Source: Vitis vinifera (Eukaryota > Streptophyta > Magnoliopsida > Vitales > Vitaceae). From it: DNA of 64,000 nt. Position 1 is the first letter of the stretch, and each line of letters opens with the position of its first letter. The notes under the pieces were generated by a model, which saw only the letters and a program-made list of their open reading frames with translations, made no database searches and was not told the DNA's origin. A program made the position numbers and the translations under genes. The stretch lies in assembly GCF_030704535.1 (NCBI RefSeq), contig NC_081810.1:434501-498500 (forward strand). The letters run 5' to 3'. This document shows positions 35,254 through 64,000 of this stretch, piece after piece.

Positions 35254-38200
35254 ATGGCGAGGCCATGCCCACTGCTTGCCTTCTGTGGCCTTTTCCTCTT
35301 CTTCTTCTTCTTGCCTTGTCTATCTTGTCCTGAACACCAAAAGCAAGCTCTTCTCCAGTTTAAGTCCTCCATCCTTGCTATTACTTCTTCATTCAACAGT
35401 TCCAACTCTCTGTTGCAGTCATGGAATTCAAATTCAAGTTGTTGTCGATGGGATAGTGTTGAATGCAGTCATACTCCAAATTCAACTTCAAGAACTGTGA
35501 TAGGTCTCAAACTAATAGAGCTTTTCACCAAGCCCCCGGTGTCGTCCACTATCTTGGCACCCATTTTTCACATCAGAAGCTTGGAGTGGCTTGACATCGA
35601 AGAGAACAACATACAAGGTGAAATCCCCGCAGTTGGGTTTGCTAATCTCAGCAATTTGGTTAGCCTAGATTTGTCGACGAATAACTTCAGTGGATCCGTT
35701 CCTCCTCAGCTCTTTCACTTACCACTTCTTCAGTGTCTTTCTTTGGATGGCAATTCTCTTAGTGGAAAAGTCCCTGAAGAAATTGGAAACCTCTCCAGGT
35801 TGCGGGAGTTATATCTCTCAGGTAACAGATCCAATTAACTTCATTAATTTAAGAGTGCTTGATCGTTTAGTTACTACTTACTAACTTTAACCTTCATCAA
35901 TGGTAAGCAACTTCTACGAAAGTTTAAAGTTAAAAACAACTTTATTATAACTCCTCAAGTAACCATATTTCATGGTACTTATCACTCCTGATATAAACAT
36001 TCTTAATGAACCACACAACCACTCATGATACTTTAGTTTGGATTATAAATCTTATAGCTTTGGGGTAATAAGAAATACTTGGCATACTCTTAACCAAGAA
36101 GTATTGAATTACAATTATACCTGATATAACACAACTATAAAGTGTATAAATAGTTTAGTAGCAATTATATATAACATTTACTATCTTTAAATATAATTAT
36201 CAGACAACAACATACAAGGTGAAATCCGTTGGTTTGCTAATCTCAGCGATTTGTTTGGCCTATATATGACAGGGAATAACTTCAGTGGATCTATTCCTCC
36301 TCAGTTCTTTCACTTACCACTTCTTCAGTATCTCTTTTTGGATGGTAATTCTCTTAGTGGAGAAGTCCCTGAAGAAATTGGAAACCTCTCAAGGTTGCAG
36401 TGGTTATCCCTCTCAGGTAACAGATTCTCAGATGACATGCTTCTTTCAGTTTTGTCTTTGAAGGGGTTAGAATTCTTGTACTTTAGTGACAATGATTTAT
36501 CCACGGAAATACCCACTGAGATTGGGAATTTACCCAACATCTCCACTTTGGCGTTGAGTAACAACCGGTTGACGGGTGGAATCCCCTCGTCCATGCAAAA
36601 ACTAAGCAAGTTGGAACAACTTTACTTGCATAACAACTTGCTAACCGGAGAAATTCCATCTTGGTTGTTCCATTTCAAGGGCCTCCGGGATTTGTATCTT
36701 GGAGGAAACCGTCTAACTTGGAATGACAGTGTGAAGATAGCACCAAATCCCAGGCTAAGTCTACTGTCTCTGAAATCTTGTGGTCTTGTTGGAGAGATTC
36801 CAAAGTGGATTTCTACCCAAACGAATCTTTATTTTCTGGATTTGAGTAAGAACAATCTCCAAGGTGCATTTCCACAATGGGTTCTTGAGATGCGACTTGA
36901 ATTTTTGTTTCTATCAAGTAATGAATTTACAGGTTCTCTTCCACCTGGTCTTTTTTCTGGACCTTCTTTACACGTGCTTGCTCTCTCAAGGAACAATTTC
37001 TCCGGGGAGTTGCCCAAAAACATCGGAGACGCAACCTCCCTAGAAATTCTTACCTTGAGTGAGAACAACTTTTCTGGGCCTATTCCTCAATCCCTCATCA
37101 AAGTTCCCTACCTAAAATTTTTGGATCTATCCAGAAATAGATTTTTTGGCCCATTCCCAGTTTTCTACCCCGAATCACAACTATCTTATATCGATTTCTC
37201 TTCTAATGATTTCTCGGGAGAGGTTCCAACAACCTTTCCTAAACAAACAATATATCTTGCATTGAGCGGAAATAAGCTTTCAGGGGGCTTGCCTTTGAAC
37301 TTGACCAACTTGAGCAACCTTGAACGCCTCCAACTCCAGGATAACAATCTTACAGGTGAGTTGCCAAACTTTCTCTCCCAAATCTCCACTCTACAAGTTT
37401 TGAACCTCCGGAATAACTCCTTTCAAGGTTTAATCCCTGAAAGTATTTTCAACCTCAGTAACCTCAGAATTCTTGATGTCTCAAGCAACAACCTAACTGG
37501 AGAAATCCCCAAAGAGTCTTGTAACCTTGTTGGAATGATTAGGGCACAAAATTCACCATCATCAATCCTTTCGATAATCGATGTGAGTTATATTGACAAA
37601 TTGTCAACCGAAGAAATGCCAGTCCATCTGGAGATCGAGGACTTGATAGTGAATTGGAAGAACTCAAAGCAAGGTATCTCTAGCGACAACCTTAACATGT
37701 ACACTTTGTTAGACTTATCAAATAACCAACTCTCCGGCCAAATTCCAGCCTCGTTGGGCCCTCTAAAGGCCTTGAAGTTACTCAACATCTCTTGTAACAA
37801 ACTCTCCGGGAAGATACCAACAAGTTTTGGTGATTTAGAAAATATAGAGACTTTGGACTTATCCCACAACAAGCTCTCTGGTTCAATTCCTCAGACCCTA
37901 ACAAAGCTGCAACAACTTACCATTCTAGACGTAAGTAACAATCAGCTCACAGGTCGGATCCCAGATGGTGGGCAAATGGGCACAATGGTATTGGATCCAA
38001 ACTACTATGCCAACAACAGTGGACTGTGTGGTATGCAAATTCAAGTGTCATGTCCTGAAGATGAGCCCCCACGACCGACAAAGCCACCAGAGAATGATAA
38101 TAAGGAGCCATGGTTTTTATGGGAAGGTGTGTGGATTGGGTACCCAGTCGGTTTGTTGTTAGCAATCGGAATCATATTTCTTACCGGGTATTTTACCCTA

Positions 38201-38257
38201 CCACCACCTTCAAACCGTCGACATCGCCCACATCGTCCAATCAGGCGATGGAATTAA
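35254..38257 (+). CDS. RLP-d: two-exon LRR receptor-like protein
   Basis: Exons 35254-35821 and 36204-38257, joined in phase 1 (CTCTCAG|GTAACAG ... TTATCAG|ACAAC), give 873 aa. ATG 35254 is chosen because the signal peptide (MARPCPLLAFCGLFLFFFFLP) starts there as in RLP-a; an in-frame ATG at 35173 would add 27 residues. The cap (CPEHQKQALLQ), the LRRs, an island (LEIEDLIVNWKNSKQGIS), NNSGLCG, a transmembrane helix and a basic tail are all present. The beginning of exon 2 (36204-36416, 213 bp) repeats the last three LRRs of exon 1, so this gene has one more LRR module than RLP-a. The module lacks 6 bases relative to exon 1 (GEIRWFAN where exon 1 has GEIPAVGFAN), which keeps the frame open. Membrane receptor without kinase; ligand unknown. 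Confidence 0.85.
35822..36203 (+). other. RLP-d intron derived from the LRR duplication
   Basis: A 382-bp AT-rich intron absent from RLP-a and RLP-b at this position. Its first bases, GTAACAGAT, equal the coding bases of the Gly-Asn-Arg codons that follow the same LRR in exon 2 (36417 onward). The same intron, 94-98 percent alike by eye, separates the repeated exons of RLP-e. Confidence 0.75.
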
Positions 38258-43709: not shown

Positions 43710-45827
<2,118 letters not shown>

Positions 45828-46395
45828 ATGGCGAGGCCATGCCCACTGCTTGCCTTCTGTGGCCTTTTCCTCTTCTTCTTCTTCTTGCCTTGTCTATCTT
45901 GTCCTGAACACCAAAAGCAAGCTCTTCTCCAGTTTAAGTCCTCCATCCTTGCTATTACTTCTTCATTCAACAGTTCCAACTCTCTGTTGCAGTCATGGAA
46001 TTCAAATTCAAGTTGTTGTCGATGGGGTGGTGTTGAATGCAGTCATACTCCAAATTCAACTTCAGGACCTGTGATTGGTCTCAATCTAATGGGCCTTTTC
46101 ACCAAGCCCCCGGTGCCCTCCACTATCTTGGCACCCATTTTTCACATCAGAAGCTTGGAGTGGCTTTACATCTCAGACAACAACATGCAAGGTGAAATCC
46201 CGGCAGTTGGATTTGCTAATCTCAGCAATTTGGTTGACCTAGATTTGTCGTGGAATAACTTCAGTGGATCTGTTCCTCCTCAGCTCTTTCACTTACCACT
46301 TCTTCAGCATCTCTCTTTGGATTATAATTCTCTTAGTGGAGAAGTCCCTGAAGAAATTAGAAACCTCTCCAAGTTGCAGGTGTTATCTCTCTCGG
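45828..46395 (+). pseudogene. RLP-e exon 1 (signal peptide, cap and first LRRs)
   Basis: Same 568-bp exon as in RLP-d, with the same start (MARPCPLLAF...), signal peptide, CPEHQKQALLQ cap and SSCCRWGGVEC pair. The donor is TCG|G|GTAAC instead of TCA|G|GTAAC, still usable. If joined to any of the array exons below, the frame runs into a stop within about 12 codons or slightly further. The locus as it stands could therefore make only a short secreted LRR fragment of about 200 residues. Called a pseudogene for that reason; transcription is unknown. Confidence 0.8.
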
Positions 46396-46792
46396 GTAAC
46401 AGATCCAATTAACTTCATTAATTTAAGAGTGCTTGATCAGTTAGTTGCTACTTACGAACTTTAACCTTCATCAATGGTAAGCAACATCTACAAAAGTTAG
46501 AAGTTAAAAACAACTTTATTATAACTTCTCAAGTAACCATATTTCATGGTACTTATCACTCCTGATATAAACATTCTTAATGAACCACACACTATCAGTC
46601 TTAACAACCACTCATGATACTTTAGTTTGGATTATAAATCTTATAGCTTTGGGGTAATAAGAAATACTTGGCATACTCTTAACCAAGAAGCATTGAATTA
46701 CAATTATACCTGATATAACACAACTATAAAGTGTATAAATAGTTTAGTAGCAATTATATATAACATTTACCATCTTTAAATATAATTATCGG

Positions 46793-47006
46793 ACAACAAC
46801 ATACAAGGTGAAATCCGTTGGGTTTGCTAATCTCAGCGATTTGTTTGGCCTATATATGACAGGGAATAACTTCAGTGGATCTATTCCTCCTCAGCTCTTT
46901 CAGTTACCACTTCTTCAGGATCTCTCTTTGCATTATAATTCTCTTAGTGGAAAAGTCCCTAAAGAAATTGGAAACCTTTCCAAGTTGCAGCGGTTATCTC
47001 TCTCAG
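46793..47006 (+). pseudogene. RLP-e array exon, unit 1
   Basis: 214-bp exon of three LRRs (FANLSDLFGLYMTGNNFSGS...). The acceptor reads TTATCGG instead of TTATCAG, so the invariant AG is lost. The length is one base more than the in-frame 213-bp version in RLP-d. Entering in phase 1 gives ...CGT TGG GTT TGC TAA, a stop after 11 complete codons. Confidence 0.8.
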
Positions 47007-47406
47007 GTAACAGATCCAATTAACTTCATTAATTTAAGAGTACTGCTTGATCGTTTAGTTACTACTTACTAACTTTAACCTTCATCAATGGTAAGCAACA
47101 TCTACGAAAGTTAAAAGTTAAAAACAACTTTATTATAACTCCTCAAGTAACCATATTTCATGGTACTTATCACTCCTGATATAAACATTCTTAATGAACC
47201 ACACACTATCAGTCTTAACAACCACTCATGATACTTTAGTTTGGATTATAAATCTTATAGCTTTGGGGTAATAAGAAATACTTGGCATACTCTTAACCAA
47301 GAAGCATTGAATTACAATTATACCTGATATAACACAACTATAAAGTGTATAAATAGTTTAGTAGCAATTATATATAACATTTACCATCTTTAAATATAAT
47401 TATCAG

Positions 47407-47620
47407 ACAACAACATACAAGGTGAAATCCGTTGGGTTTGCTAATCTCAGCGATTTGTTTGGCCTATATATGACAGGGAATAACTTCAGTGGATCTATTC
47501 CTCCTCAGCTCTTTCAGTTACCACTTCTTCAGGATCTCTCTTTGGATTATAATTCTCTTAGTGGAAAAGTCCCTGAAGAAATTAGAAACCTCTCCAAGTT
47601 GCAGGTGTTATCTCTCTCAG
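47407..47620 (+). pseudogene. RLP-e array exon, unit 2
   Basis: As unit 1, but the acceptor AG is intact (TTATCAG|ACAAC), so this is the unit most likely to be spliced to exon 1. It still has the 214-bp frame fault. Its 3' half (EEIRNLSKLQVLSLSG) matches exon 1 of RLP-e better than the other units do, which suggests conversion from exon 1. Confidence 0.8.
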
Positions 47621-48017
47621 GTAACAGATCCAATTAACTTCATTAATTTAAGAGTGCTTGATCGTTTAGTTACTACTTACTAACTTTAACCTTCATCAAT
47701 GGTAAGCAACATCTACAAAAGTTAAAAGTTAAAAACAACTTTATTATAACTCCTCAAGTAACCATATTTCATGGTACTTATCACTCCTGATATAAACATT
47801 CTTAATGAACCACACACTATCAGTCTTAACAACCACTCATGATACTTTAGTTTGGATTATAAATCTTATAGCTTTGGGGTAATAAGAAATACTTGGCATA
47901 CTCTTAACCAAGAAGCATTGAATTACAATTATACCTGATATAACACAACTATAAAGTGTATAAATAGTTTAGTAGCAATTATATATAACATTTACCATCT
48001 TTAAATATAATTATCGG

Positions 48018-48231
48018 ACAACAACATACAAGGTGAAATCCGTTGGGTTTGCTAATCTCAGCGATTTGTTTGGCCTATATATGACAGGGAATAACTTCAG
48101 TGGATCTATTCCTCCTCAGCTCTTTCAGTTACCACTTCTTCAGGATCTCTCTTTGGATTATAATTCTCTTAGTGGAAAAGTCCCTAAAGAAATTGGAAAC
48201 CTTTCCAAGTTGCAGCGGTTATCTCTCTCAG
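48018..48231 (+). pseudogene. RLP-e array exon, unit 3
   Basis: As unit 1: TTATCGG at the acceptor, 214 bp, and the same stop in the entering frame. It is identical to unit 1 over most of its length (KEIGNLSKLQRLSLSG). Confidence 0.8.
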
Positions 48232-48631
48232 GTAACAGATCCAATTAACTTCATTAATTTAAGAGTACTGCTTGATCGTTTAGTTACTACTTACTAACTT
48301 TAACCTTCATCAATGGTAAGCAACATCTACGAAAGTTAAAAGTTAAAAACAACTTTATTATAACTGCTCAAGTAACCATATTTCATGGTACTTATCACTC
48401 CTGATATAAACATTCTTAATGAACCACACACTATCAGTCTTAACAACCACTTATGATACTTTAGTTTGGATTATAAATCTTATAGCTTTGGGGTAATAAG
48501 AAATACTTGGCATACTCTTAACCAAGAAGCATTGAATTACAATTATACCTGATATAACACAACTATAAAGTGTATAAATAGTTTAGTAGCAATTATATAT
48601 AACATTTACCATCTTTAAATATAATTATCGG

Positions 48632-48845
48632 ACAACAACATACAAGGTGAAATCCGTTGGGTTTGCTAATCTCAGCGATTTGTTTGGCCTATATATGACA
48701 GGGAATAACTTCAGTGGATCTATTCCTCCTCAGCTCTTTCAGTTACCACTTCTTCAGGATCTCTCTTTGGATTATAATTCTCTTAGTGGAAAAGTCCCTA
48801 AAGAAATTGGAAACCTCTCCAAGTTGCAGCAGTTATCTCTCTCAG
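48632..48845 (+). pseudogene. RLP-e array exon, unit 4
   Basis: As unit 3 with minor changes (KLQQLSLSG). Acceptor TTATCGG. Its intron starts normally at 48846 but is interrupted at 49017 by the CACTA element and resumes at 61805. Confidence 0.8.
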
Positions 48846-49016
48846 GTAACAGATCCAATTAACTTCATTAATTTAAGAGTACTGCTTGATCGTTTAGTTA
48901 CTACTTACTAACTTTAACCTTCATCAATGGTAAGCAACATCTACGAAAGTTAAAAGTTAAAAACAACTTTATTATAACTCCTCAAGTAACCATATTTCAT
49001 GGTACTTATCACTCCT

Positions 49017-49320
49017 CACTACAAGGAAAAAGATATATGGTGTCATTTATAACGAGTCACCATATACATAAGGTGTCATTACAGCATAGCGTCACCTTCT
49101 CCACTGACACCATAGAGGGTACCAATTGGTGACGTATTTGGAAGTGACACCAAAGTAGATAAATGGTGACCCATTCGGAAGTGACACCATATATTTCTAG
49201 TGATGATAGGGTGTCGCATTAAATGCATCATCTTTGAGTTATGATGTCATATTAAATGCATCACCTTTGAGTAATGGTGTCACATCATTGTAAATTATTG
49301 TGGAAGATATGATTGCTTTT
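49017..49320. repeat. Left terminal and subterminal repeats of the CACTA element
   Basis: A dozen or so variants of GGTGTCA/TGACACC, GGTGACG and GTGACCC within 300 bp. Such motif clusters bind the CACTA-encoded accessory protein in known elements. Confidence 0.8.
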
Positions 49321-49974
49321 AGTTATAGATTTTTGTAATGCTTATGAATTAATAAGTAAGATTAACCTGTTTATATTCTGTCCATAAATATAACAATCAT
49401 ATTATATTTAACTCATTTTTCTGTAATGTTTCTGGAATAACTCATAATACATTGATCATCTAATAATATTTGTATATCAAATGTTCACAAAAAGATAGTA
49501 CATCCACCAAATCAAACCCATCAAAACTAAAAAAAGAAGAGTGAATACATACCAAAACATGATTTACAAATGTTAAAGATCCCAAGATTCATGTATACCT
49601 CCATTTCATAAGCATAAAACCGGCTAACTATAAAATGACATAAAAGTCCCATCTAAAAATCTAAATTTCTCAGTACTAATTAAAGTAACATTTATGTCCT
49701 ACAACGTATGACATAAGAGTTGCATTTAAAAACCCAAAATCTTGTTGCCTTCTTCTTTCTTTTTATTCTCCATTCCACCATCCCAAAAGTGTATACCTGC
49801 ATTACATAGTTTAATGAGTTTTATAGATTTGTATTGAAGAAAATAAACATGGATCGATGTTATCATAAATGAACAAATCTAAGAACTATTTTTTTTTTTC
49901 AAATAGAAACATTATTCAAAGAGTACCTATGGAAAAATTCATGTAGTAGCTAAAGGACTCACCATGCATGGTGA

Positions 49975-52900
49975 TCATGATGCATCAACATGATTCATGA
50001 TTAGTTGTAGCACAAAAGTAGCCCATTCTCCTCTAATTTCATCGAACTCTACTTGAGAATATGTTTTTTTACCACCAAACTGAAATCAAATAAGAAAATA
50101 ACATTAAAATGCATAACATTTGGAAGCCTAAAACTATGTACAATTCATTAAATTTGTAATACCTTTGAAGCAATAATTGTAGGATAAAAAATTATCTCTT
50201 TTATGAATCTCATAACAAAGTAGCCACATTCGAACCCTCCTTCTTGCCTTGGACACTAATCGATCAATTATAAAATAACATTAGTACTCATATATATAAA
50301 TGGTGCAAATGCATAAGCTAATGTGTAAAGAAAATTTTTTGGATGTCACCTGCACTAGTTGCCAAGATGGCTCCCTCTTAGATGTTTTCTTTGCAGATAT
50401 TCGAAGAGCCCTATGTAAATAAGTTCAATGGGTACATTTTTAAAATAGGTAAATGTTATATGTTTTAACATATATATAGATAATAAAAAAAATGTGTTTG
50501 AGATGAATGTATTTTAAAAAAATAATAATAATATAGGAAGAACTTACATGTTTACGATATCCTTTAAGTCCTCACATGGTTTGTGATGCATAGGGTCAAG
50601 ATAGTGGACTATCATTTTCCTTGGCTCAATCACTACCAAGACCCAATGAAAGCTAAAACATTAAAAACAAAAGTAGCATATAATTAGAAATATAAATCAA
50701 TCATAAAACCTCAAATTAAAGTATAATATTTGTCACTTACTCGGGGTTGTAGGGTATGAAAACATATTTAGCATCTTGGCACTCCATTAAGCGTTTTGAC
50801 AACAATTGTGCTCTTTTCTCTGTTTGAGGAGTACTAAGGCCTGCTCGTGATATTGTAAAAGGATTAACAAATATAAATTGTGATTCCTTTTTGGCAATAT
50901 GTACTTGATCATGCATGTGCCTATTATTGTATCAAAACACCAAAAGAAAATTATCATTAGTCATATCCAATCTTGTTCAACATGGGCAACTCATTAAAAA
51001 AATAAAAACAAATGAAAATAAAAGGTGCACACCATAAATAGAAGGAGATGCAGTTTGATGACACCTCCAAAGATGAAATAATGTATTCACAATCCTCTCT
51101 AGATATATATGTTTGAAATTCGACACCGAATAGTGAAATGGGGAGCTGTATTGGGTATGTCTTGTCATTACCAAGGCAACCATCCACAAATTTCTGAAAA
51201 TTTTTAATGACCGAATGATTTTGAGGCTTAGATTTTCGAATAATTGGTGTCTTCACTATCTTCTTCTTTCCTTTATCCAACACCTATGAAAAAGGAAGGA
51301 ATGTTAGATATATATACTCTTAAACAATAAAATACCAAGTTACAATCAAATTTACTATAGGCATAAAATGACATACCTGGGGATGTTCAGTTTCAAGTAT
51401 GACAAGGCTTGTTGGCCAGTCAAGCTCAAAGCCAATAGCATCCCCAACATTGATAATCTCATATGGATTTGGAAATGGGAGTCTAGCATCTGGCTTGTGT
51501 GCAACATTTATTACAACCAACCTATTTGATCCTTTTTCTTCTATTAGTGTACCAGTTGCAACAACATTTCCTTTTCTTTCCACTGCTAATTTGCATTTAA
51601 TTACCTTCAATACAACAAATAATATCATTTACATAGGCTTTATATCACTTATATTAATCTTGTATTATTAGTAAGTAAATGCATACCTTGTGTTTCAGTG
51701 GTGGTTCTGGTGGTTGGGGCTCTTCTATCATTTTAAACATTGGTTTTTCTGCTACAACTGGTTGTAAAACAAGTTGTTGTCTCATGTTATTACTACCCAT
51801 ATCAGAATGGGGTGTGGGGGGAGACATAACTTGTCTTGTTGCAGCATCTTCCATCTCCTTTCGTACCATTTCCCATATTTCTTCTTTGATTTTTTTCATG
51901 TCATCAGATGGTTGATGAAAGTATGAGCTAGGCCTAACCAAACGGTCTTGACCTACCACACGTCCTGGATGATCAGGCTTACCCAATGCTTGACCTAATA
52001 TGTCATTTGGACCAGGTGGAGGTAGTCCAGTCTCCTTAGCATTTTCTAGTAATTCATCCTACAACAAAACATATATTAGTAATAATTTGATGAAGATGAT
52101 TTACATATCAATCAAAGACAACCAATTCAAGGTAGCTAGAAAATGAATTGTTTTAATACAAAGGATAATAGACAAATTGGTGTATAACATAAATATGTTT
52201 TGTTCTAAAAGGCATAAATATGCTAACTTACTATCATGTTAATCACTGGCTCTGTAATCTTATTAAACTTTCCTTTCTTCTCACGTGCTTTCTTCCATAA
52301 AACACTTCTATCAACCCTACCAATACTCCCTTCTGCTTGTAGCTATAAAAATTTTAACAATAAAACTCATTAGTTCAATATGATCAAGTTAATAAATGAC
52401 ATTTAAAAATTGGAATAATTTTCCTATAAACAAAATATATACTCCATTTTTTTACAAAAATTTTTACTTACTATATCTTGCTCAAAACGTGCATATCCTT
52501 TTCTTCCAAGATAATGATTGTAAATGTGTTTATCTCTTCTCGCTTTCTGAACCTTGCGATATTCCTAAAAAATATAGACACAAAATTAGTACATGGTGAA
52601 ACTATGTAAATGTAAAAATTGAAGATGTATTAAAAATAATGCTTAACATTAAAGTGTTCAGAAAGTCTATCTTTAACAAACTGTCTCCAATGATCCTCTT
52701 GTATGAATGGGTAGATAGGAGGTGGCTTTTTCAGCTTTTCTGGGTCATTCTTGAAAGGTAATATATATTTCTTTGTCAACTTGTACTTAAATGTTCGAAA
52801 CCTGATGCCCATTAGTAGGAAACAATTCCTCTTGGAATTTTGATTCACATTAAAGCTTGTCTACAAAATAGCAACCCATGTTAGCTCATGTTAATGAATG

Positions 52901-53194
52901 CATACAATAATTATATATGAAAGCTATAGATAGACTTACCATGATCAAATCCCATAACTTCTCCTTAGTCTCTTTAGGGACTTTCCTCCAACTCTCAACA
53001 ATTATTGGCACATGGGTTCTAGTTATTGTACCAAGATAACTACTTAGTTCAACTGAATTTTCCCCAATGTGACTACCAAGGCTATTGTATTCAATCTTGA
53101 GCTTTATCCCTTTACTTCGATTTTTTGCAATCTCTGGTTTCAATGTACTACCTCTATGCTTTACTTTTGGCATTTCCTCTTCTTCTGGATCCAT
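49975..53194 (-). CDS. CACTA-encoded Transposase_24-like protein with C-terminal Ulp1 cysteine protease
   Basis: Twelve exons on the minus strand: 53194-52940, 52860-52648, 52564-52472, 52342-52232, 52058-51687, 51604-51377, 51283-51033, 50920-50741, 50652-50548, 50410-50350, 50255-50163 and 50079-49975. All introns are GT-AG and the sum is 2067 bp, 688 aa without a stop. The N-terminal part (exons 1-5) resembles the plant Transposase_24 (Ptta/En/Spm) family: WRKVPKETKEKLWDLI, EDHWRQFVKDRLS, HYLGRKGYARFEQD. Exons 8-12 form an Ulp1/C48 peptidase: His in DFHWVLVVI, Asp in HYLDPM, Gln in CPRQEGG and Cys in FECGYFVMRF, all in the right order. Ulp1 enzymes cleave SUMO. The role in transposition is unknown; it may counter SUMO-dependent silencing (inference). 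Confidence 0.85.
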
Positions 53195-53743
53195 ATTTGT
53201 GTGGAAGATATCAAGTAAATGTGCAAACTAGTACTTCACCAACAAACCTGTAAAATGACTCAAAAGCAAGATTAGTATATCCTTGCATATATTTCCTATA
53301 ATTAAATTGGTCATTCACAAATATAGTTTTTGAAATTTTATTTCAAAGTTTGTCTTGTTTTTTGATTTCTTATCAATAATGAAGAATTTATTTGTGAGGA
53401 TAATAATAAAATAAATTAGTGCATATATAGTTTCAATTATTATTTATAGTTTTAATGAAAAAGAAATTTAGGAATGAGAGTTTCAAGTTATGTGAGCATA
53501 AAATCAAAACATGATAATAAAAAATAATATAAATCTAGTTCCATGGACAACAAAAAAGATAGTTAAATGAAGATTGAAGTGGTACCTTTGAATAACATAT
53601 GTTTATGATGCATGAAATCAATTTAGGATGATCAATATATATATATTATGAGCAATATATAGAAGCTAAGCTAATGTGCAACTCATGAAAACTAATAAGT
53701 GAAATGCCTTATTATATCTCATGTCAAGGGTACAATATATTAT
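53195..53743 (-). other. Spacer between the two CACTA genes
   Basis: AT-rich and non-coding. It holds the 3' end of the transposase gene and the promoter of the Ulp1-fusion gene, or they may be parts of one transcript. No TATA box can be fixed. Confidence 0.45.
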
Positions 53744-56700
53744 TTAATTATTTTCAATCCATATGCCCTCACAGTCTTCTCTCATGTATATTGCATCTGA
53801 TTCATCCATAACGTCAAATGATTCAACTTCTGGCATTGAACTTATAAAGGGGTGATGTTCCATGCAATTATCGGTGAAGTCATCCAGTCCTTCCATGTTG
53901 TTGAAATCTTTTGGAGGAATTGAGAGAACTATTGACCATTTGGGATCAAGTTGGTCTTCAACATAGAAGACTTGCTTGGCTTGTGATGCTAAAATAAATG
54001 GATCCGATTTATGACCAATTTTGGAGAAGTCAACTAATGTGAACCCAAGTTCATCCACTTTTATACCATTCTTGTTGTCAACCCAATCACACTTGAAAAT
54101 TGGAATTTTGAACATGTTGTAATCAAGATCCCATATCTCATTAATGACCCCATAAAAGCAAAGTTCACCAAAAACTGGGTTCTTATCCTTAGAACTGGCA
54201 ATTTGCATAGTCCCTGCTAAAATGCTAACACCACTATTTTGGGTGACGCATGTCATATCACGTTCCTTAGTATGGTAACGACACCCATTAATGATGTATC
54301 CAGGATATTTAACCACCTGGTGAGTAGGGCCATGTGCTAACCACCTAAGCGTGTTGGAAATATCTTGCCCGTTATGGATAGCCTCTTCAACCTGTGTGTA
54401 GTCAAAACATAATTGGAAACTTGTGATGTTTTCAACATATTAAAATAATTTCTGAAAACTAAGAGATTACCTTTCCTTTAAGCCAATACGTAAAACAACG
54501 CATATGTTCTTCTTGCAACCAAATTTGTCTCTTAGATTGTCGAGGGTATTGAGACTTCAACCAATTCATATGTTCCCTATAACGTTATAGACAAGGAATG
54601 CAAACTTAGGATTTCATCATTATGTTATGAAATTATAAAAAAATAAAGGCATATTTTTCTTACTCAATGTATGGTTGGACAATAGTTGTATTCTCTAACA
54701 CATAATGATGTGCTTGTAACCACGATTTATGATCAATGTTGGTTGAACGACCACCAATTATAGGTCTACCAAATTTGTTGTCATAATTGCTACTTTTTGG
54801 AATTCCAATTGCATGAGTCCCTGATAAATATTCAGTACAAAATTCGACAGCTTCCTCTGCTAAATAGCACTCAGCAATGCATCCTTCAGGCCGATTATGA
54901 TTGCGAACATATCCTTTAAGAACTTTCATATACCTCTCAAATGGGTACATCCACCTAAAGTAAACTGGACCACATAGTCGCACCTCCCTTATCAAATGCA
55001 CTGTTAGATGAAGCATAATATCAAAAAATGAAGGTGGAAAATACTTTTCAAGTAAGCACAACGTGACCACTAACTCATTATGTACTTCATTCAATTTTGG
55101 CACATCAACCACTTTTGTACATAATTTATTGAAGAAGATACACAATCTTGATATAGTATATCTCACATGCTTTGGCAAAACAGAACGTAATGCAACTGGC
55201 AACAGTTGTTGCATAAGTGCATGGTAGTCATGAGATTTTAGACCAAACAACTTCAATTCCTCTAAGGAGACAAGATTTCTAAAATTTGAGCAATACCCCT
55301 CAGGGACCTTCAAATTAGACAACGTTTGACAAACTAATTTTTTCTCATTTCTAGATAGTGAAAAACATGCAGGGGGAAGGTAGGTCTTTTTCAAGTCAAC
55401 TCTTGGGAAAAGTTCAGACCTTAAACCCATTTCAACTAGGTCAAGTCGAGCATTAAGTCCATCCTTTGTTTTCCCAGGGATGTTAAACAAAGTACCAATA
55501 ATACTCTCACAGACATTCTTTTCGATGTGCATAACATCCAAGTTGTGACGGACATGAAGATATTTCCAATATTCTAACTCAAAAAGTATGGATTTTTTTT
55601 TCCAACAATTTATGTTCACATCAGATTCAAGAGATTTTATCTTCATTTTTCCCCAAGAAATAGGAATGAGATCAACTTTTTCAAGTATTTCTTCCCCACT
55701 CAAAATTTTAGGAGGAATCCTAAAATCTTGTTCACCATTGAATGCCTTCTTTTGTCTCCGATAGGGATGGTTACGTGGAAGAAATTGTCGATGACCCATA
55801 TATGAGTTTTTCCTGCCATGCTTTAATCTTTTGGAATATGTTCCTTCTCCACATATTGGACATGCATAATATCCTTTCACAGTGCAACCAGCTAAGTTTC
55901 CATATGCAGGAAAATCATTGATTGTCCATAAAAGGATGGCCTTTAAAGTAAAAACCTCACGCAAGTGTGCATCATAAGTCTCAACTCCTTTTTCCCACAA
56001 AGTTTTAAGGTCATCTACCAATGGACTCAAGTAAACATCTATATTTTTACCAGGTTGTCGTGGTCCTGAGATCAATAATGATAACATCATAAACTTCCTT
56101 TTCATGCACAACCAAGGAGGAAGGTTGTATATGACCAGTATAACAGGCCAACAACTATGTCTACTGCTCATAGACTTATGAGGATTTATACCATCTGTTG
56201 AGAGTGCTAGTCTAAGGTTTCGCGGTTCAGAAGCAAAATCAGGCCACATGTGGTCAACTAGTTTCCACGCTGAGGAGTCTGATGGGTGGCGTAGTTTACC
56301 ATCACATTCTTTATCCTTGGCATGCCACATAAGATGTTTAGCAGTTTCTGAAGATTGGAACATCCTTTTGAATCTAGGGATTGGTGGGAAATACCACAAA
56401 ACCTTTGCAGGAACCCCCTTCTTAATCTTCCCCCCTTCACTGTTTATCTTCCACCTTGACTTTCCACAAGTTGGGCATGCAATAGCATCCTTATACTGGT
56501 TTCTATACAAAATACAATCATTAGGACATGCATGAATTTTTTGATATTCCATACCAAGAGCACTGAAAGTCTTTTTGGCTTCATACATGGACAACGGCAT
56601 CTCATTATTCAATGGCAACATATCTCCAAGCAACTGAAGCAATTCTGAGAATCCTTTGTCAGACCAACCATAACGTGCTTTTAAGTTGTAAAGTTTTACC

Positions 56701-57131
56701 AATGCTGACAACTTTGTGTATTTCATGCATCCAGGATATAAAGGTTTTTCTGCATCTTCAAGTAACCTTCCAAACACTTGGGGATCATTCATACAATTAA
56801 CTTGTGCAGCATTAACCATATCTATTGTATCAGCAACATCATTATACTCGCATTTGTCATAACGTTGTTGTGAGACATTTGAAAATCCTCCACTGGGACC
56901 CTTTTCTCCATGCCAATACCATACTCGATAACTGATATCTATTCCATTAAAGAACAAATGCTCTCTAATGACTTGAGGAGTTTGACATAACAGATTTCCA
57001 CAACGTAAGCATGAGCATTTTATAGAGGTATGGTTGGTTGAATGTGCTAATGCGAAATTGATAAAGTTTTCAACTCCTTCATCATACTCAACTGACCTTC
57101 TATCTTTTGACATCCAATCTCGATTTTCCAT
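53744..57131 (-). CDS. CACTA transposase, TNP2/TNPD type
   Basis: Catalyses excision and insertion of the element. Exons on the minus strand: 57131-54664, 54576-54471 and 54391-53744 (GT-AG, 3222 bp, 1073 aa, no internal stop). Domains in order: the transposase-associated domain at the N-terminus (WMSKDRRSVEYDEGVENFI, then CPC-like Cys pairs CSCLRCGN); a zinc-binding region (CPNDCILYR, ACPTCGKSRW); the Transposase_21/TNP2 core (LALSTDGINPHKS, VIYNLPPWLCMKRKF, ISGPRQPGKNIDVYL); DUF4218 (PVHLIREV-like VHLIREVRLCGPVYFRWMYP, then ERYMKVLKGYVRN); and DUF4216 at the end (DLDYNMFKIPIFKCDWVD). The ATG at 57131 fits the family start MENRDWM. The DDE/D residues cannot be assigned by eye. Length and layout match intact plant TNP2 proteins. 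Confidence 0.92.
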
Positions 57132-58617
57132 TTCAATTAAAATAATGGAATATATATCCTATACAAGAGAATTGCAAAACTTGTTAATATTAAGAACAAA
57201 AAAATTTAAGTACATCTTTTTTCAACATAATATTGGATATATTTAAATAACTAAATGTATAAACTTAAATAGGCAAGAACAAAACTTAATATGCATTAGT
57301 ACACAACATAGTTGTCAAAAGTTTGTGAGATAATATACATCAGTATTATGCAATAAAACTTTGGAACAAAATAAAACACATAAGTATACAAAACATTTGT
57401 GAAAAGTTTGTCAAATAACATATGTTTAATTAAACAAGCTTCAAAAGCATAATATATAGAAAAAAAGTTTAAAATATATAAAGATTTAATTACCTTTACG
57501 AGGTAATTTTATCTTCCTTACAATTGATACTATATAAGAGTATGCAATAAATAAACATACACTTACACTTGTAATAACTTCTTTGATACTGACTTGTTTA
57601 CTCTTTGAACCTGTTATAAGAATAATAGATTATCAATATAAAATGTTACAGATTTAAATTATTCTTTTTTTATATACTAGAAATGACACATATCCATAAT
57701 CAACTATCAAGTCATATTTTCAATAATACATTGTAACTTTTCAACTAAATATTCATCTCCATTAAATTAAACTAATAATCTAAAAAAAATGCAATATTTC
57801 AAGTATGAATATGTGTATTTATATATATTACATGCTTCAAGTCATTCATATGACTTACAAATATATATTACATGTGTATCTATAAGCATATTCTTCTGTC
57901 ACCCATGCTAATCAATGTATTCCTTAATCCACTATATACATCAGACCCCCAAGAATCATATATATACCTTTTTTTTATTTAAAACAATTCTTGATAAATA
58001 GAAGCACTTAAATTATGTAAAAGTAGTTTAAATATGCTCCCCAGTAGTTTAAATATATATTACATGTGTATCTATAAGCATGGGTTTGGAATCCTTTTTC
58101 ATGATGATAGTGGAGGAAGTGGGAAGAATTTATGGTTGACTGTGTGCTTTGTGAGGGAATCTTGGAATCCGAAGCTTGCTCTTCCTTAAGGCTTTGCTAG
58201 GGAACTGATCTGGAGGGTCTAGAGGTGGAGATTTTTCCCCTTTTTTGGGTGGGTGAAGGTTGGGGTGGATTGATGGGAAAGGATATTTCAAAACCAATCA
58301 GAAATGGAGAGAATGTATTTTATTGTCTTACTTGTACCACAAACGACAAAAGAGGGGCTCAGAACCAAGTTTGGTTTGATGTTAGGCATGGGAAATGTCA
58401 TTCAAAGGATCATTTTTAGGTCTTCTTTAGCGTGGCAGTAGCCAGAGAAGTGGGGTTTTTTTGTGGTTCAGATGGAGGGAGAGGTCATTGAAACCTAAGG
58501 TTTCTTGCAAGGTTCTGTTGCTAGGAGCTTAAGCTGGTTATAGATTTCGTATCAAGCATTTTAGCAAAAGATTTTGGGATGGATAAGGAGGACAAGTAGG
58601 TCTGGAAGACTTTAAAA
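57132..58617. other. CACTA internal non-coding region, transposase leader side
   Basis: AT-rich leader or intron sequence for the transposase up to about 58070. The part from 58080 to 58600 has a different, GC-richer texture with scattered short open frames and looks like captured foreign sequence. No protein family is recognised in it. Confidence 0.4.
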
Positions 58618-59076
58618 AAGGCGTCCTCATCATTGGTTCTGGAAGTGCCACTCACAATCTGAGGGCCCTAGCTCAATCCCAATAGTGAATCGGTTGTGCC
58701 TTGGGCATATGATCAGTTTGATACCTGGTTGAAAGAAGCTCTCCTTGATGGAAGGTAATCATTCAATTACTATATATATACGCTATTCTTTGCCATAAAA
58801 TCAAGCAACATAAAATAGAGTTGCTCCTATGCATTGAAGCAGCGGCAGTCATTTGTTTTGTTTCATTTTCTGACATTTATATTTACATGTTCGTGTTTAA
58901 GATATGAAGACATAAATCACTATGAAGAGAAGGCACCGCATGCCAGAGAGGCCCACCCATGGCTGGAACACTTCTATCCATTGCATGTAGCCATGGGTTC
59001 CAAACTCATCCACCATAGCTGGAGCCTCGGTACTCTCTCTTATGCCTCTTACCAGTTCACAACAACAGCCACCTGA
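58618..59076 (+). pseudogene. Captured LigB/DODA-like extradiol dioxygenase fragment (two exons)
   Basis: Plant LigB-type class III extradiol ring-cleavage dioxygenase, the family of DOPA 4,5-dioxygenase. Exon 58618-58757 reads GVLIIGSGSATHNLRAL and then, after about 4 extra bases at 58669, a second frame with NSESVVPWAYDQFDTWLKEA and LLDG. A donor (GGAAG|GTAATC) and a 138-base intron follow. Exon 58896-59076 reads [49 protein letters not shown] and a stop. About 8-9 residues are missing after HVAMG. The fragment covers only the C-terminal third, lies opposite to the transposase, and keeps its intron, so it was captured from genomic DNA. The frame break and missing domain rule out enzyme activity. 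Confidence 0.85.
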
Positions 59077-60990
59077 AATTTCCATCATCAAATCTTGTTG
59101 TTCTTCGGTCCTTCCTTTGTGAATAAGTACCGACTCTGTTACTTACATATTAATTCATCCCTGCTTGATTGATTAATATATAACAACCATTATAAGATTG
59201 AAACATGTTATTGGAATTGTCATTATTATAAGTTAGTATTTACGTTTGATGTTCATTCAACCTCATTGAGAAAAATCAGTTTTCTTAGCATTTTGTTTTT
59301 GCTTTCATCAACACTTAACCGAACATGACCTAGGTAAATGTACAAGTGGCCCCAAGAATTGACCTTGTTGGCTTCTTGTTTCATGGAGAGGACCTCATGG
59401 AATGTGGGGGGGGAGGAGGGCAGGATTGGGTGGGTGTGTGGGAAGCCATGTGGGAGAAGAGCCTTACCATGGACCGGTTGATGAGAATGAGGATAATCCT
59501 CGTGAATTGGTCTTGCATGTACAAACAACAGATAGAATCAACAAAGGCTCAATTTGAAGTACTGCAGTCTATGGGATTCCATATCAAAGAACAACCATTA
59601 AAGGAAAAGGGAAGTCACCAACTCAACGTATTAATGAGGATAGCTTGTTGTGACTTTCATCAATATTTTGGACTCTAAGCATCAGACTGTTGAGTCTTTG
59701 ATCAGGGGAGAGAGCTTATACCAAAATTCTAAATATGCAGCCCCTAGGATGAAGGTGTTTGCCATTTTCTCAGGCACATGTGAACCAAGCACCACCTTAT
59801 TTTCCACTTAGATCATGCCATATGAGTGACCAAGAATCTAATCTAAAGCAGCAAGATTTCATGAAGATGTCAGTCATTATTTCATGTCTGAACAAAGTCT
59901 AAAATGGGTAACAAGAGGCTGAAATTAATTTGCTCAGATGAGGCTGAAATGGGCATTAAGTGACCAAGAACTTAATTTAAAATAGCAAATTTCATTAAAA
60001 GGAATTGGCATACAAGAGGAATTTGCTCAATGAGGACGATCCCTTAATGCCCCATGCACATGTACCAATCTGAAAATCTCACTCAAAACAACTTTATAGA
60101 ACTTCCCACTATTTTCTGGGTAAATGGGAATTTATTCTCTCACCCGGACAAGTAATAGAGACACAAACATTCAGCAACGCCCATTATTCTACATTAACAA
60201 ACACACACAATTTAAGGATATTTCTCTTTTGATAAAAGCCATTTTCCTATTGTAAATATAGTAATTTTAAAAGAGATGTGTTTAGCATTCCTAGATTTTA
60301 TGTAGCATGATTACCAACAAGAAAAGGAAAAGGTTGAATTATGGAATATTTATTCTCAAAATAAAAATAACTTAGATCTGTAAAATCTGAAAGCATCCAA
60401 CATGGCATACCATAAACTTAATCAACTATAAATAATTAAAATAAAAATAAAAATATGCAAGTTGCTGTATTTGTGGCTTTTCTATGTTTTTGTATGGTGT
60501 CAGAATTTTCCAATTTATAAAACTTGTAAAAGACAAAACACAAAAATGCTTTTACATGCAAGTTGCTGTATTTGTGGCTTTTCTATATTTACTTAATGTT
60601 TTACTTTTATTTTACATGACCATATATTTAAAAAAAATGTAAAACTCAAATACATTCACGCTGCTACGAAACCAATTACTGTACCTAATATTCCAAGCTC
60701 TTGAAAAACATCCCCAGCCCACAACCAAATCCATTCATAAAGAACAATTACTTTTATTTTTCCCCTCTACACGTGTTGGATATGAAGCATATGAGTCAGT
60801 TAACTTTGACTCAAGGCACAAGAACAATAATGAACACCATTACTCTGATGGATGACGTCCTTTGGACCCATTCCTTAAGGTCTGATTGGAACCCACCCAA
60901 TCAAACAATTGATTCTGGTACTAAAGGCTTCCGTCACTAAACAGTAACAAATTTCCTCAAAATCCTCATGCAGATTAATCCAAAGAATGG
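59077..60990. other. CACTA internal non-coding region
   Basis: No gene recognised. The part 59340-59680 has a G-rich texture and an open frame without family resemblance, and may be further captured DNA. A 33-base string (ATGCAAGTTGCTGTATTTGT...) occurs twice, at about 60456 and 60557. A diverged repeat around AGTGACCAAGAA occurs near 59827 and 59962. Confidence 0.45.
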
Positions 60991-61394
60991 ATTTAAAGAT
61001 TCCGTGTCTCATTCTCACTTAGATACAAACAGAAAAATCATTCCTTTTTTTTTCTCTCTCATTTTTTTAGAAGGGATGAAGATTATGTGGTAATATATCT
61101 CAAATAAAATCTGTACCTATCGTTCTCACACAAATACATATTAAAAATCATTCCTTTTTTCTTGTTTTCCACTTGTTTTTATGGAGTTGATTGTGTGTTT
61201 GGTTCAGATTAAAAAATCAATTAATCTACAGGTTTTTTCTTTTATGCTAGAACTTTAAACCTAAGTTTTTCTTCCCTACAACTCAAAAAAAAAAAAAAAC
61301 ATAAAAACCATAATACAAAAACGTTGAAACAATCAATATAATGACATTAATAAAAAAAAAAAAAAGATGATAGATCTAAGAGATTTTGACTTAC

Positions 61395-61490
61395 CTAGGA
61401 GTCCACAAAGAGAAGAATGTCGGTTGTGAGCGTGTTGACTATGGGTGAGAGAAAAGGTAGAAGAAGATTATGATTTTAATTATATATAGG
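61395..61490 (-). promoter_or_regulatory. Probable transposase promoter and non-coding first exon
   Basis: On the minus strand CCTATATATAATT (61478-61490) is a strong TATA box. About 85-95 bases later CTCCTAG|GTAAGTC (61395/61394) is a strong splice donor. This fits a short untranslated first exon at the transposon end, spliced across several kilobases to the transposase ATG at 57131. The same signals are repeated in the second CACTA copy at 63501-63596. Confidence 0.55.
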
Positions 61491-61619
61491 GTTTGTATAT
61501 TGAGATTTTTTGGATTGTGGGTGTCATGTGGAAACAATGGGCTTTTTATATATTGGCCTTCATTATTAATTCTAAAAGTGGGCTCAAATAGGCTCATTAA
61601 GTTATAATACTTAAAAAAA

Positions 61620-61804
61620 ATTATTTTATATGGTGTCACTTTCCAAAAAATGACACTATTAATATAAAATTAACATCATCTAACTACCTCAATAGAAGAT
61701 TTTTAATATGATGTGTCACCTTTATTAATTATAAACCCTATGGTGTCATTATTTTAAAAGTGACACCATAAATAGTGACACCATAAATTATTTTTGTAGT
61801 AGTG
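61620..61804. repeat. Right terminal and subterminal repeats of the CACTA element
   Basis: Repeated TGGTGTCA/TGACACCAT motifs, including GTGACACCATAAATAGTGAC, end in GTAGTAGTG. The outermost sequence pairs imperfectly with the left terminus: CACTACTACAAAAATAATTT read inward, against CACTACAAGGAAAAAGATAT on the left. Confidence 0.85.
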
Positions 61805-63186
61805 CCTGATATAAACATTCTTAATGAACCACACACTATCAGTCTTAACAACCACTCATGATACTTTAGTTTGGATTATAAATCTTATAGCTTTGGGGTA
61901 ATAAGAAATACTTGGCATACTCTTAACCAAGAAGCATTGAATTAGAATTATACATGATATAACACAATTATAAAGTGTATAAATAGTTTAGTAGCAATTA
62001 TATATAACATTTACCATCTTTAAATATAATTATCAGACAACAACATACAAGGTGAAATCCGTTGGGTTTTGCTAATCTCAGCGATTTGGTTGGTCTATAT
62101 ATGACAGGGAATAACTTCATTGGATCCATTCCTTCTCAGCTCTTTCACTTACCACTTCTTCAGGATCTCTCTTTGGATGATAGTTCTCTTAGTGGAAAAG
62201 TCCCTGAAGAAATTGGAAACCTCTCCAGGTTGCAGCTGTTGTCCCTCTCAAGTAACAGATTCTCAGATGGCGTGCTTCTTTCAGTTTTGTCTTTGAAGGG
62301 GTTAGAATTATTGGACTTGAGTGACAATGATTTATCCACGGAAATACCCACTGAGATTGGGAATTTACCCAACATCTCCACTTTGGCGTTGAGTAACAAC
62401 CGGTTGACGGGTGGAATCCCCTCGTCCATGCAAAAACTAAGCAAGTTGGAACAACTTTTCTTGCATAACAATTTGCTAACCGGAGAAATTCCATCTTGGT
62501 TATTTGATTTCAAGGGCCTCGAGAGTTTGTATCTTGGAGGAAACCGTCTAATTTGGAATGACAGTGTGAAGATAGCACCAAATTCCAGGCTAGGTCTACT
62601 GTCTCTGAAATCTTGTGGTCTTGTTGGAGAGATTCCAAAGTGGATTTCTACCCAAACGAATCTTTTTTTTCTGGATTTGAGTAAGAACAATCTCCAAGGT
62701 GCATTTCCACAATGGTTTCTTGAGATGCCACTTGAATTTTTGTTTCTATCAAGTAATGAATTTACAGGTTCTCTTCCACCTGGTCTTTTTTCTGGACCTT
62801 CTTTACACGTGCTTGCTCTCTCAAGGAACAATTTCTCCGGGGAGTTGCCCAAAAACATCGAAGACGCAACCTCCCTAGATATTCTTACCTTGAGTGAGAA
62901 CAACTTTTCTGGGCCAATTCCTCAATCCCTCATCAAAGTTCCCTACCTAAAATTTTTGGATCTATCCAGAAATAGATTTTTTGGCCCATTCCCAATTTTC
63001 TACCCCGAATCACAACTATCTTATATCGATTTCTCTTCTAATGATTTCTCGGGAGAGGTTCCAACAACCTTTCCTAAACAAACAATATATCTTGCATTGG
63101 GCGGAAATAAGTTTTCAGGGGGCTTGCCTTTGAACTTGACCAACTTGAGCAACCTTGAACGCCTCGAACTTCAGGACAACAATCTT
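61805..63186 (+). pseudogene. RLP-e last exon and preceding intron remainder, cut by a second CACTA
   Basis: From 61805 the intron of the array resumes. The acceptor TTATCAG (ending 62036) is intact and the exon starts at 62037. An extra T (GTTGGGTTTTGC) puts the first 20-odd codons out of frame and leads to TGA. The LRR frame is open from 62062 to 63186 and runs close to RLP-d exon 2 (for example LTGGIPSSMQKLSKLEQL). The internal CTCAGGTAAC of RLP-d is CTCAAGTAAC here. At 63187, in the codons for Asn-Leu (CAATCTT), a CACTA end begins. The island, C-terminal cap, transmembrane helix and tail are therefore separated or lost. Confidence 0.88.
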
Positions 63187-64000
63187 CACTACTACAAAAA
63201 TAATTTATGGTGTCACTATTTATGGTGTCACTTTTAAAATAATGACACCATAGGGTTTATAATTAATAAAGGTGACACATCATATTAAAAATCTTCTATT
63301 GAGGTAGTTAGATGATGTTAATTTTATATTAATAGTGTCATTTTTTGGAAAGTGACACCATATAAAATAATTTTTTTTAAGTATTATAACTTAATGAGCC
63401 TATTTGAGCCCACTTTTAGAATTAATAATGAAGGCCAATATATAAAAAGCCCATTGTTTCCACATGACACCCACAATCCAAAAAATCTCAATATACAAAC
63501 CCTATATATAATTAAAATCATAATCTTCTTCTACCTTTTCTCTCACCCATAGTCAACACGCTCACAACCGACATTCTTCTCTTTGTGGACTCCTAGGTAA
63601 GTCAAAATCTCTTAGATCTATCATCTTTTTTTTTTTTTTATTAATGTCATTATATTGATTGTTTCAACGTTTTTGTATTATGGTTTTTATGTTTTTTTTT
63701 TTTTTTGAGTTGTAGGGAAGAAAAACTTAGGTTTAAAGTTCTAGCATAAAAGAAAAAACCTGTAGATTAATTGATTTTTTAATCTGAACCAAACACACAA
63801 TCAACTCCATAAAAACAAGTGGAAAACAAGAAAAAAGGAATGATTTTTAATATGTATTTGTGTGAGAACGATAGGTACAGATTTTATTTGAGATATATTA
63901 CCACATAATCTTCATCCCTTCTAAAAAAATGAGAGAGAAAAAAAAAAGGAATGATTTTTCTGTTTGTATCTAAGTGAGAATGAGACACGGAATCTTTAAA
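63187..64000 (+). mobile_element. Second CACTA element, one end only (continues past the window)
   Basis: Starts CACTACTACAAAAATAATTT and matches the reverse complement of 60991-61804 almost base for base through the whole 814 bp. That includes the TATA box, the first-exon donor CTCCTAG|GTAAGTC (63596) and the T runs. It is thus the same family in the opposite orientation. The preceding CTT (63184-63186) is the predicted target duplication; its partner lies beyond the window. Confidence 0.95.

What the first reader, a model, noticed from the sequence alone, without database searches (positions are those of the whole stretch)
45828..63186. An LRR exon has been amplified as exon-plus-intron units inside one receptor-like protein gene
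RLP-e has exon 1, four nearly identical units of about 612 bp, each a 214-bp three-LRR exon with its intron, and a fifth such exon beyond a transposon. LRR receptor-like proteins usually change repeat number within a single exon; spreading as separate splice-ready units is unusual. With alternative splicing it could vary LRR number, although the present copies carry frame faults. Unit 3 and unit 4 are nearly the same, so expansion was recent.
Basis: seen in the sequence. Interest (0 to 1): 0.85.

Follow-up and report, generated by a model that had tools for sequence, protein, structure and literature searches.

The report
Copied receptor exons in plant gene
A plant immune-receptor-like gene holds four near-copies of a short exon with its intron, which look able to lengthen the protein two repeats at a time, although a jumping gene now interrupts the gene.

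Summary
The array is real: four head-to-tail units (611/614 bp) between exon 1 and the last exon of RLP-e. Three corrections follow.

(1) The "fifth exon" is the start of the terminal exon. Sister gene RLP-d has the same two-exon plan with one intron.

(2) The 214-bp exons with frame faults are probably mis-drawn. An acceptor 70 bp inside each unit, present in six of six copies with a branch-point-like CTAAT, gives 144-bp, phase-1, two-LRR exons; 16 of 16 combinations are open. No RNA data were available.

(3) The "intron" is an internal piece of a dispersed repeat. A related gene lacks it; another locus keeps the repeat-LRR junction with much more of the repeat.

Each unit starts like exon 2 and ends at exon 1's donor, as unequal crossing-over predicts. 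A 12.8-kb CACTA element in the last exon now breaks the gene. LRR exon arrays are known in Tetrahymena and brown algae: a plant variant of a known kind.

The parts
45744..46395 (+). RLP-e exon 1: N-terminal region (signal peptide by eye, not tested), LRR cap and first LRRs; ends at donor TCTCGG|GTAACA
   Evidence: ORF; its 3-LRR block is 90% identical to that of RLP-d exon 1; LRRNT_2 and LRR hits for the RLP-d counterpart
46396..46862 (+). Intron 1 by the favoured model (donor 46396, acceptor ending 46862); holds the repeat-derived stretch and a 70-nt LRR-like tail with a 5-bp deletion
46863..47006 (+). Cassette exon u1, 144 bp, two LRRs, phase 1/1
   Evidence: open in frame; LRR_8 E 1.2e-7 on 46862-47005
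47477..47620 (+). Cassette exon u2, 144 bp; 3' end and following intron resemble exon 1/intron 1
48088..48231 (+). Cassette exon u3, 144 bp
48702..48845 (+). Cassette exon u4, 144 bp
47629..48012 (+). Example of the intron body: internal 384-bp piece of a dispersed repeat; the same stretch is in the other introns of RLP-e (split by TE1 in intron 5) and in RLP-d
49017..61804 (-). TE1: CACTA-type element, 12788 bp, inside intron 5, 3-bp target duplication CCT; tnp2 transposase ORF 54660-57131 (-)
62037..62107 (+). 71-nt LRR-like stretch before the favoured acceptor of the last exon; frame-broken if read as coding from +0
62108..63186 (+). RLP-e terminal exon, first part; continues beyond the window at C6:510477 after TE2
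63187..64000 (+). TE2: second CACTA-type element, opposite orientation to TE1, 12790 bp in all (runs to C6:510476), target duplication CTT; interrupts the coding exon
35173..38257 (+). RLP-d, sister gene with one intron (35822-36203 or 35822-36272); spliced frame open, 900 or 877 aa

Best explanation
RLP-e is an LRR receptor-like protein gene in which a 144-bp exon coding exactly two LRRs was multiplied together with its intron. The likely ancestral plan was one continuous exon, as RLP-g (and RLP-a) still have. A piece of a dispersed repeat now lies between two copies of an LRR block (shown). Inferred: it entered by illegitimate recombination at a short AGAT match with a truncated RLP fragment headed by that repeat, of the kind still seen at RLP-f. 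The repeat piece can be spliced out because LRR coding DNA happened to carry a donor (TCAG or TCGG|GTAAC, from the codons for S-G-N), a branch-point-like CTAAT and an acceptor (GACAG|GGAAT, from T-G-N) at the same LRR register. From then on the exon-1 and exon-2 blocks, about 612 bp apart, could mispair. Unequal crossing-over inside them added whole intron-plus-exon units, each with an exon-2-type start and exon 1's donor at its end, and a later two-unit duplication gave four (inferred). Each unit adds two LRRs in frame and in register whether included or skipped. The gene probably stayed coding until a CACTA element entered the last exon, so the present allele should make at most a truncated, non-anchored protein. 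Splicing itself is predicted, not observed.
For: Unit anatomy: 4 of 4 internal units begin at the repeat-LRR junction of exon 2 and end at exon 1's donor GTAACAGATCC. At 11 aligned columns both exon-1 copies agree, both exon-2 copies agree and the types differ: 10 (columns 25-97, four of them one deletion) are exon-2 type in u1-u4, and column 213 is exon-1 type; columns 148 and 197 also follow RLP-e exon 1 against both exon-2 copies. Acceptor: the +70 AG is present in 6 of 6 exon-2-type copies, the +0 AG in 3 of 6. +70 gives 16 of 16 open unit combinations, +0 gives 0 of 16. CTAAT lies at -36 of +70 in 6 of 6 copies; no YTRAY lies at -60 to -15 of +0 in the four copies checked; 20 of 153 + strand CAG|G sites of the window have CTRAY at -45..-18. 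Frame-breaking indels (5 bp; -1 G in RLP-d; +1 T in the last copy) sit in the 70-nt stretch. The shared exons of RLP-d and RLP-e differ by in-frame gaps of 3 and 12 nt and 103 substitutions, with one stop, two codons before the end; 1% of random placements leave the rest stop-free. TTGGG in RLP-f and in the five RLP-e copies implies that RLP-d's frame at +0 is derived. Repeat origin: 13 places on other contigs match the intron body; 11 were read and share sequence past both junctions. RLP-g lacks insert and second block. RLP-f has the same junction, with repeat similarity running about 1.1 kb further upstream. TE target duplications and continuing tail.
Against: No transcript was seen. An in-frame AG is not rare: 3 or 4 AGs lie within -30..+80 of each unit, and each has about a one-in-three chance of being in phase. 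The +70 AG also exists in the RLP-f fragment, so it need not have evolved for splicing. The +0 AG is intact in u2, the last exon and RLP-d and would compete, as would AGs at +15 and +44. The exon-1 character of unit 3' halves rests on few columns (148, 197, 213); columns 152, 210 and 220 match exon 1 only because the last copy has private changes, as do 36, 63, 89, 96 and 103 in the 5' half, and columns 133 and 166 (and 205 in three units) follow the last copy instead. The contrast in divergence between the 70-nt stretch and the 144-nt part is 0/69 v 13-14/144 for units (p 0.011 with 13, but confounded by their exon-1-type 3' halves) and only 2/69 v 14/144 for the last exon (p 0.098). dN and dS are both raised in LRR blocks, so conversion between paralogues, which also imports stop-free tracts, blurs dating and weakens the stop-codon simulation.
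Confidence: 0.6

Rival explanations
1. The exons are 214 bp (three LRRs) with the acceptor at the unit start, as the first reader drew them. RLP-e then was already a pseudogene when the array grew, and the expansion is neutral tandem duplication in dead DNA.
For: The +0 boundary is the LRR/repeat junction; it is intact and in frame in RLP-d (900 aa). All five exon-2-type copies of RLP-e share a 5-bp deletion that breaks the frame at +0, so the fault precedes the amplification.
Against: The shared exons of RLP-d and RLP-e carry 103 substitutions, only in-frame gaps and one stop, two codons before the end, which does not look like long decay; 3 of 5 acceptors lost AG; RLP-f has the 5-bp deletion without RLP-d's further base loss, so the ancestor would not have worked at +0.
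Confidence: 0.22
2. The insert is not efficiently spliced in either gene; transcripts end or stop shortly after exon 1 and only a short LRR protein of about 222 aa is made. The units are simply noncoding repeats.
For: Reading through the donor gives a stop a few codons on (ORF 45744-46412, 222 aa; RLP-d 221 aa).
Against: RLP-d's downstream 661 codons are open and RLP-e's terminal exon differs from it only by in-frame gaps, which would not be expected if they were never translated.
Confidence: 0.12
3. The array is an assembly or haplotype-merging artefact.
For: Two-unit blocks D1 and D2 differ at 15 of 1225 columns, a level that two haplotypes could show; period r2 has no private column.
Against: Period r0 has 10 private columns, r1 two and r3 one; the last period is interrupted by TE1 with a clean target duplication; the held genome is 495.6 Mb in 21 contigs, which suggests, but does not prove, a long-read assembly.
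Confidence: 0.06

Closest known systems
Tetrahymena 90-bp-exon LRR genes (PMC6564038; passages read)
   Same: Tandem arrays of exon-plus-intron units coding LRR sequence; unequal crossing-over between exons of one gene proposed as a cause; recent expansions with similar introns.
   Different: 90-bp exons with phase-2 introns in thousands of ciliate genes; here 144-bp phase-1 exons, four copies, one plant gene.
Brown-algal ROCO genes with shuffled LRR exons (PMC11378527; passages read; Zambounis 2012 not held)
   Same: LRR-coding exons in tandem, proposed to vary LRR combinations by alternative splicing.
   Different: One LRR per 72-bp phase-2 exon, with splice variants reported; here two LRRs per exon, no RNA evidence, and a receptor-like protein.
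Tomato Hcr2 / Cf-2 receptor-like proteins (PMC7468133; passages read)
   Same: Plant RLPs whose LRR number changes by intragenic recombination, giving near-identical nucleotide repeats.
   Different: The passages seen describe recombination in the LRR-coding domain and do not mention introns; here intron-separated units change in number.
Internal duplication that multiplies a pre-existing intron, and intron gain by tandem duplication (PMC4974935; passages read)
   Same: Tandem duplication carrying an intron with flanking exon is mentioned there; cryptic coding signals used as splice sites.
   Different: There a gene piece was duplicated in a potato RdRp gene; here the intron body is a dispersed-repeat fragment and the unit multiplied to four extra copies.

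Membership tests
Plant LRR receptor-like protein (RLP) | LRR N-terminal cap, 24-aa extracellular-type LRRs, no kinase domain | tested here: met
   LRRNT_2 and LRR hits and no kinase hit for RLP-a and the two RLP-d exons (the cap in exon 1); LRR hits for the RLP-e terminal exon part; mostly 24-residue spacing
Plant LRR receptor-like protein (RLP) | Membrane-spanning helix and short tail in the present RLP-e allele | tested here: not met
   The hydrophobic stretch (judged by eye) lies beyond TE2; the present frame ends at aa 786 with all four units, earlier with fewer
Tandem LRR exon array (Tetrahymena/ROCO type) | Repeated exon-plus-intron units with equal phase at both ends | tested here: met
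   Four 144-bp units by the favoured acceptor, junctions all at codon position x.33, 16 of 16 combinations open; with the +0 acceptor the blocks are 214 bp and not symmetric
Tandem LRR exon array (Tetrahymena/ROCO type) | Exons are spliced in mature RNA | not testable with these tools
   No plant RNA data in the collections on hand
CACTA (En/Spm) transposon | CACTA termini, 3-bp target duplication, tnp2 transposase | tested here: met
   CACTA ends and CCT/CTT duplications; Transposase_21 E 3.5e-100 in TE1. TE2's interior was not read
Introner (whole transposon acting as intron) | Intron ends coincide with transposon ends | tested here: not met
   In the 11 copies read the repeat continues past both intron ends

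The most novel reading that the evidence does not exclude
Intact alleles of RLP-e make a family of receptors differing by two-LRR steps through alternative inclusion of near-identical cassette exons, a land-plant counterpart of the brown-algal ROCO scheme, started by capture of a transposon fragment as an intron whose splice sites came from LRR coding DNA.
Probability: 0.13. Interest if true: 0.8.

Novelty: new variant of a known kind. Interest (0 to 1): 0.55.

Why it matters
It suggests step by step how an intronless plant receptor gene can acquire an intron from a repeat and then change LRR number by whole exons. States before (RLP-g), at one unit (RLP-d) and after amplification (RLP-e), and a donor-like junction (RLP-f), lie within about 71 kb. 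If spliced, each unit changes the receptor by two LRRs without disturbing the frame, so the link between LRR number, splicing and recognition could be tested in one natural series.

Tried and rejected
Rejected: a whole-transposon (introner) origin of the intron, because the repeat runs on past both ends in the 11 copies read, of 13 found on other contigs. Rejected: a separate fifth exon; it is the 5' end of the terminal exon. Rejected: reading the units with the +0 acceptor in any of 16 combinations. A first count of AG at LRR boundaries was off by one residue and was redone: 10 of 80 LRR boundaries carry AG and 3 of 80 AG|GT at this position, so such motifs are common enough to need no special cause. 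A probability for indel placement computed is not used, because it assumed no coding indels and one search found in-frame ones. Structure prediction was not run: a spliced protein is not a letter-for-letter reading of the window.

None of the titles or abstract openings shown described a plant RLP with an LRR exon-plus-intron array; the lists were partial (12 of 6,587; 6 of 9; 8 of 12), only open-licence PMC papers are held, and most listed papers were seen as title and start of abstract only. The banana RLP survey PMC9025879 (passages) reports 42 of 78 genes predicted intronless; passages of the rose Rdr1 paper PMC3503547 describe no such array.
Full report
What is there. The stretch 45.7-49.0 kb of the window holds tandem copies with start-to-start spacing 611, 614, 611 and 614 bp, and a further copy 13.4 kb on. 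A blastn of one 612-bp unit against the window finds the two neighbouring units at 98.4 and 98.2%, the exon-1 end plus intron 1 at 95.8%, a truncated period at 97.9% and the exon-1 end plus intron of the neighbouring gene RLP-d at 92.0%.

The sister gene sets the ground plan. RLP-d (35173-38257) has exon 1, one 382-bp stretch of the same intron sequence and a long second exon. Joined at the +0 acceptor it is open for 900 aa, and at an acceptor 69 nt further on for 877 aa. In RLP-e the same plan carries four extra units, and the copy at 62037 is simply the beginning of the terminal exon, not a fifth free exon.

Where the exon begins. With the boundary at the start of each unit (+0) the blocks are 214 bp, and every one of the 16 combinations of units meets a stop at residue 230 or 240. 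Three of the five RLP-e acceptors at that place read CGG instead of CAG. I listed all AGs from -30 to +80 of each unit: 3 or 4 per unit, of which only the one at +70 (+71 in the last copy) gives an open frame. It yields a 144-bp exon of exactly two LRRs whose junctions fall at the same position of the codon and of the LRR. With it 16 of 16 combinations are open to the second transposon, and, with the flanks of that element joined in a script, 16 of 16 run on to a stop two codons before that of RLP-d; the two extremes give 880 and 1072 aa. The +70 AG is present in 6 of 6 copies, and CTAAT lies at -36 of it in 6 of 6; no YTRAY motif was found at -60 to -15 of the +0 site in the four copies checked (u1, u2, the last copy and RLP-d). 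CTRAY at -45 to -18 occurs at 20 of 153 + strand CAG|G sites in the window.

The 70 nt before the +70 acceptor behave like noncoding DNA. All exon-2-type copies share a 5-bp deletion; RLP-d has lost one G and the last copy gained one T there. The RLP-f fragment has the 5-bp deletion with the G run intact, so the frame of RLP-d at +0 is probably a later accident. By contrast, the shared exons of RLP-d and RLP-e (cassettes not included) differ by 103 substitutions and in-frame gaps of 3 and 12 nt (a third gap of 3 is the end of the alignment), with a single stop, two codons before RLP-d's end. Random placement of the 101 substitutions outside that tail leaves the frame stop-free in 1% of trials; conversion from coding paralogues would weaken this test. 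Substitution contrasts point the same way but are weaker: 0 of 69 against 13-14 of 144 for units (p 0.011 with 13; confounded because unit 3' halves are exon-1 type), and 2 of 69 against 14 of 144 for the last exon (p 0.098). The evidence is indirect and no RNA was available. An in-frame AG is also not rare: 10 of 80 LRR boundaries in these genes carry AG at this position.

Where the intron came from. The own genome (495.6 Mb, 21 contigs; window at C6:434501-498500) was searched with 45828-49000. Of 30 matches, 13 on other contigs match the intron body. Eleven of these were read: they share sequence past both ends of the intron, and two longer stretches are alike over 2955 bp at 89.9%. The intron body is thus an internal piece of a large dispersed repeat, not a whole element. 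RLP-g (C6:538526-540995) has a single block and no insert, taken as the state before; its own frame appears broken further on. At RLP-f the same repeat-to-LRR junction occurs at C6:516341-516964, and the similarity to the repeat runs about 1.1 kb further upstream, from C6:515250, with another piece from 514651. The left junction of RLP-d/e lies in AGAT, shared by the LRR codons and the repeat as seen at RLP-f; illegitimate recombination there is my inference. Insert plus LRR block was found only in RLP-d, RLP-e and RLP-f among the 30 matches; the tool states that such counts are lower bounds.

How the array grew. Four of four internal units begin at the exon-2-type repeat-LRR junction and end at exon 1's donor, the expected product of crossing-over between the two blocks. 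Of 11 columns at which the two exon types are fixed for different states, 10 in the 5' part (four belong to one deletion) are exon-2 type in every unit and one in the 3' part is exon-1 type. Columns 148 and 197 also follow RLP-e exon 1; columns 133 and 166, and 205 in three units, follow the last copy; several other matches to exon 1 are only private changes of the last copy. Periods alternate in two types at nine columns, three of them one gap, so a two-unit block was probably duplicated. Intron copies differ from each other by 2-8 of about 400 bp and from RLP-d by 4-12 of 382 bp, while 1272 aligned bp upstream of the two genes differ by 14. Amplification and gene duplication are therefore of similar age, and polarity between them is not proved.

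State of the gene now. TE1 (49017-61804, 12788 bp, target duplication CCT) sits in intron 5 and carries a tnp2 transposase ORF. TE2 (63187 to C6:510476, 12790 bp, target duplication CTT) sits in the terminal exon in the opposite orientation; its first 814 bp match TE1's end at 99.9% and its other end matches over 584 bp at 100%; its interior was not read. The tail of the receptor resumes after it and is open to its stop. The present allele is thus broken by TE2 and would give at most a truncated protein without the membrane helix.

Comparison. LRR exon arrays, with unequal crossing-over proposed, are known in Tetrahymena, and shuffled LRR exons with splice variants in brown-algal ROCO genes. 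Tomato Hcr2 receptors change LRR number by intragenic recombination. Duplication of pre-existing introns is also described. What I have not seen elsewhere, in the searches named under Tried and rejected, is the combination in a plant RLP: capture of a repeat fragment as intron, splice signals lent by LRR codons, and amplification of in-register two-LRR exons. That the species is a grapevine is my recollection from the gene content and genome size; no call names it.

Noticed in passing
33900-38257 versus 44470-63186: RLP-d and RLP-e LRR blocks differ by about 10% at both silent and replacement sites (exon-1 block dN 0.096, dS 0.133) while upstream DNA differs by 1.1% and introns by 1-3%: coding diverges faster than noncoding, which suggests conversion from other paralogues.
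   Followed up: partly
49017-61804 and 63187-64000: Two CACTA-type elements of about 12.8 kb, with nearly identical ends, lie in opposite orientation within one gene, 1.4 kb apart.
   Followed up: partly
29109-29450: RLP-c is only a 5' fragment; its receptor similarity ends at 29450 and is followed by sequence that looks like a retrotransposon (the latter label is from my reading, no family search).
   Followed up: no
41758-41907: Fragment of an RLP C-terminus (46% over 50 aa to RLP-a) upstream of RLP-e.
   Followed up: no
43888-43979: Pure CT dinucleotide run of 46 copies followed by a TA run.
   Followed up: no
25906-28336: RLP-b is split over two frames around 26.4 kb.
   Followed up: no
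C6:513429-514227 (L010): RLP-f has an exon-1-like stretch that runs on into LRR coding sequence without the insert and then breaks off, 2.1 kb before a separate repeat-plus-LRR fragment.
   Followed up: partly
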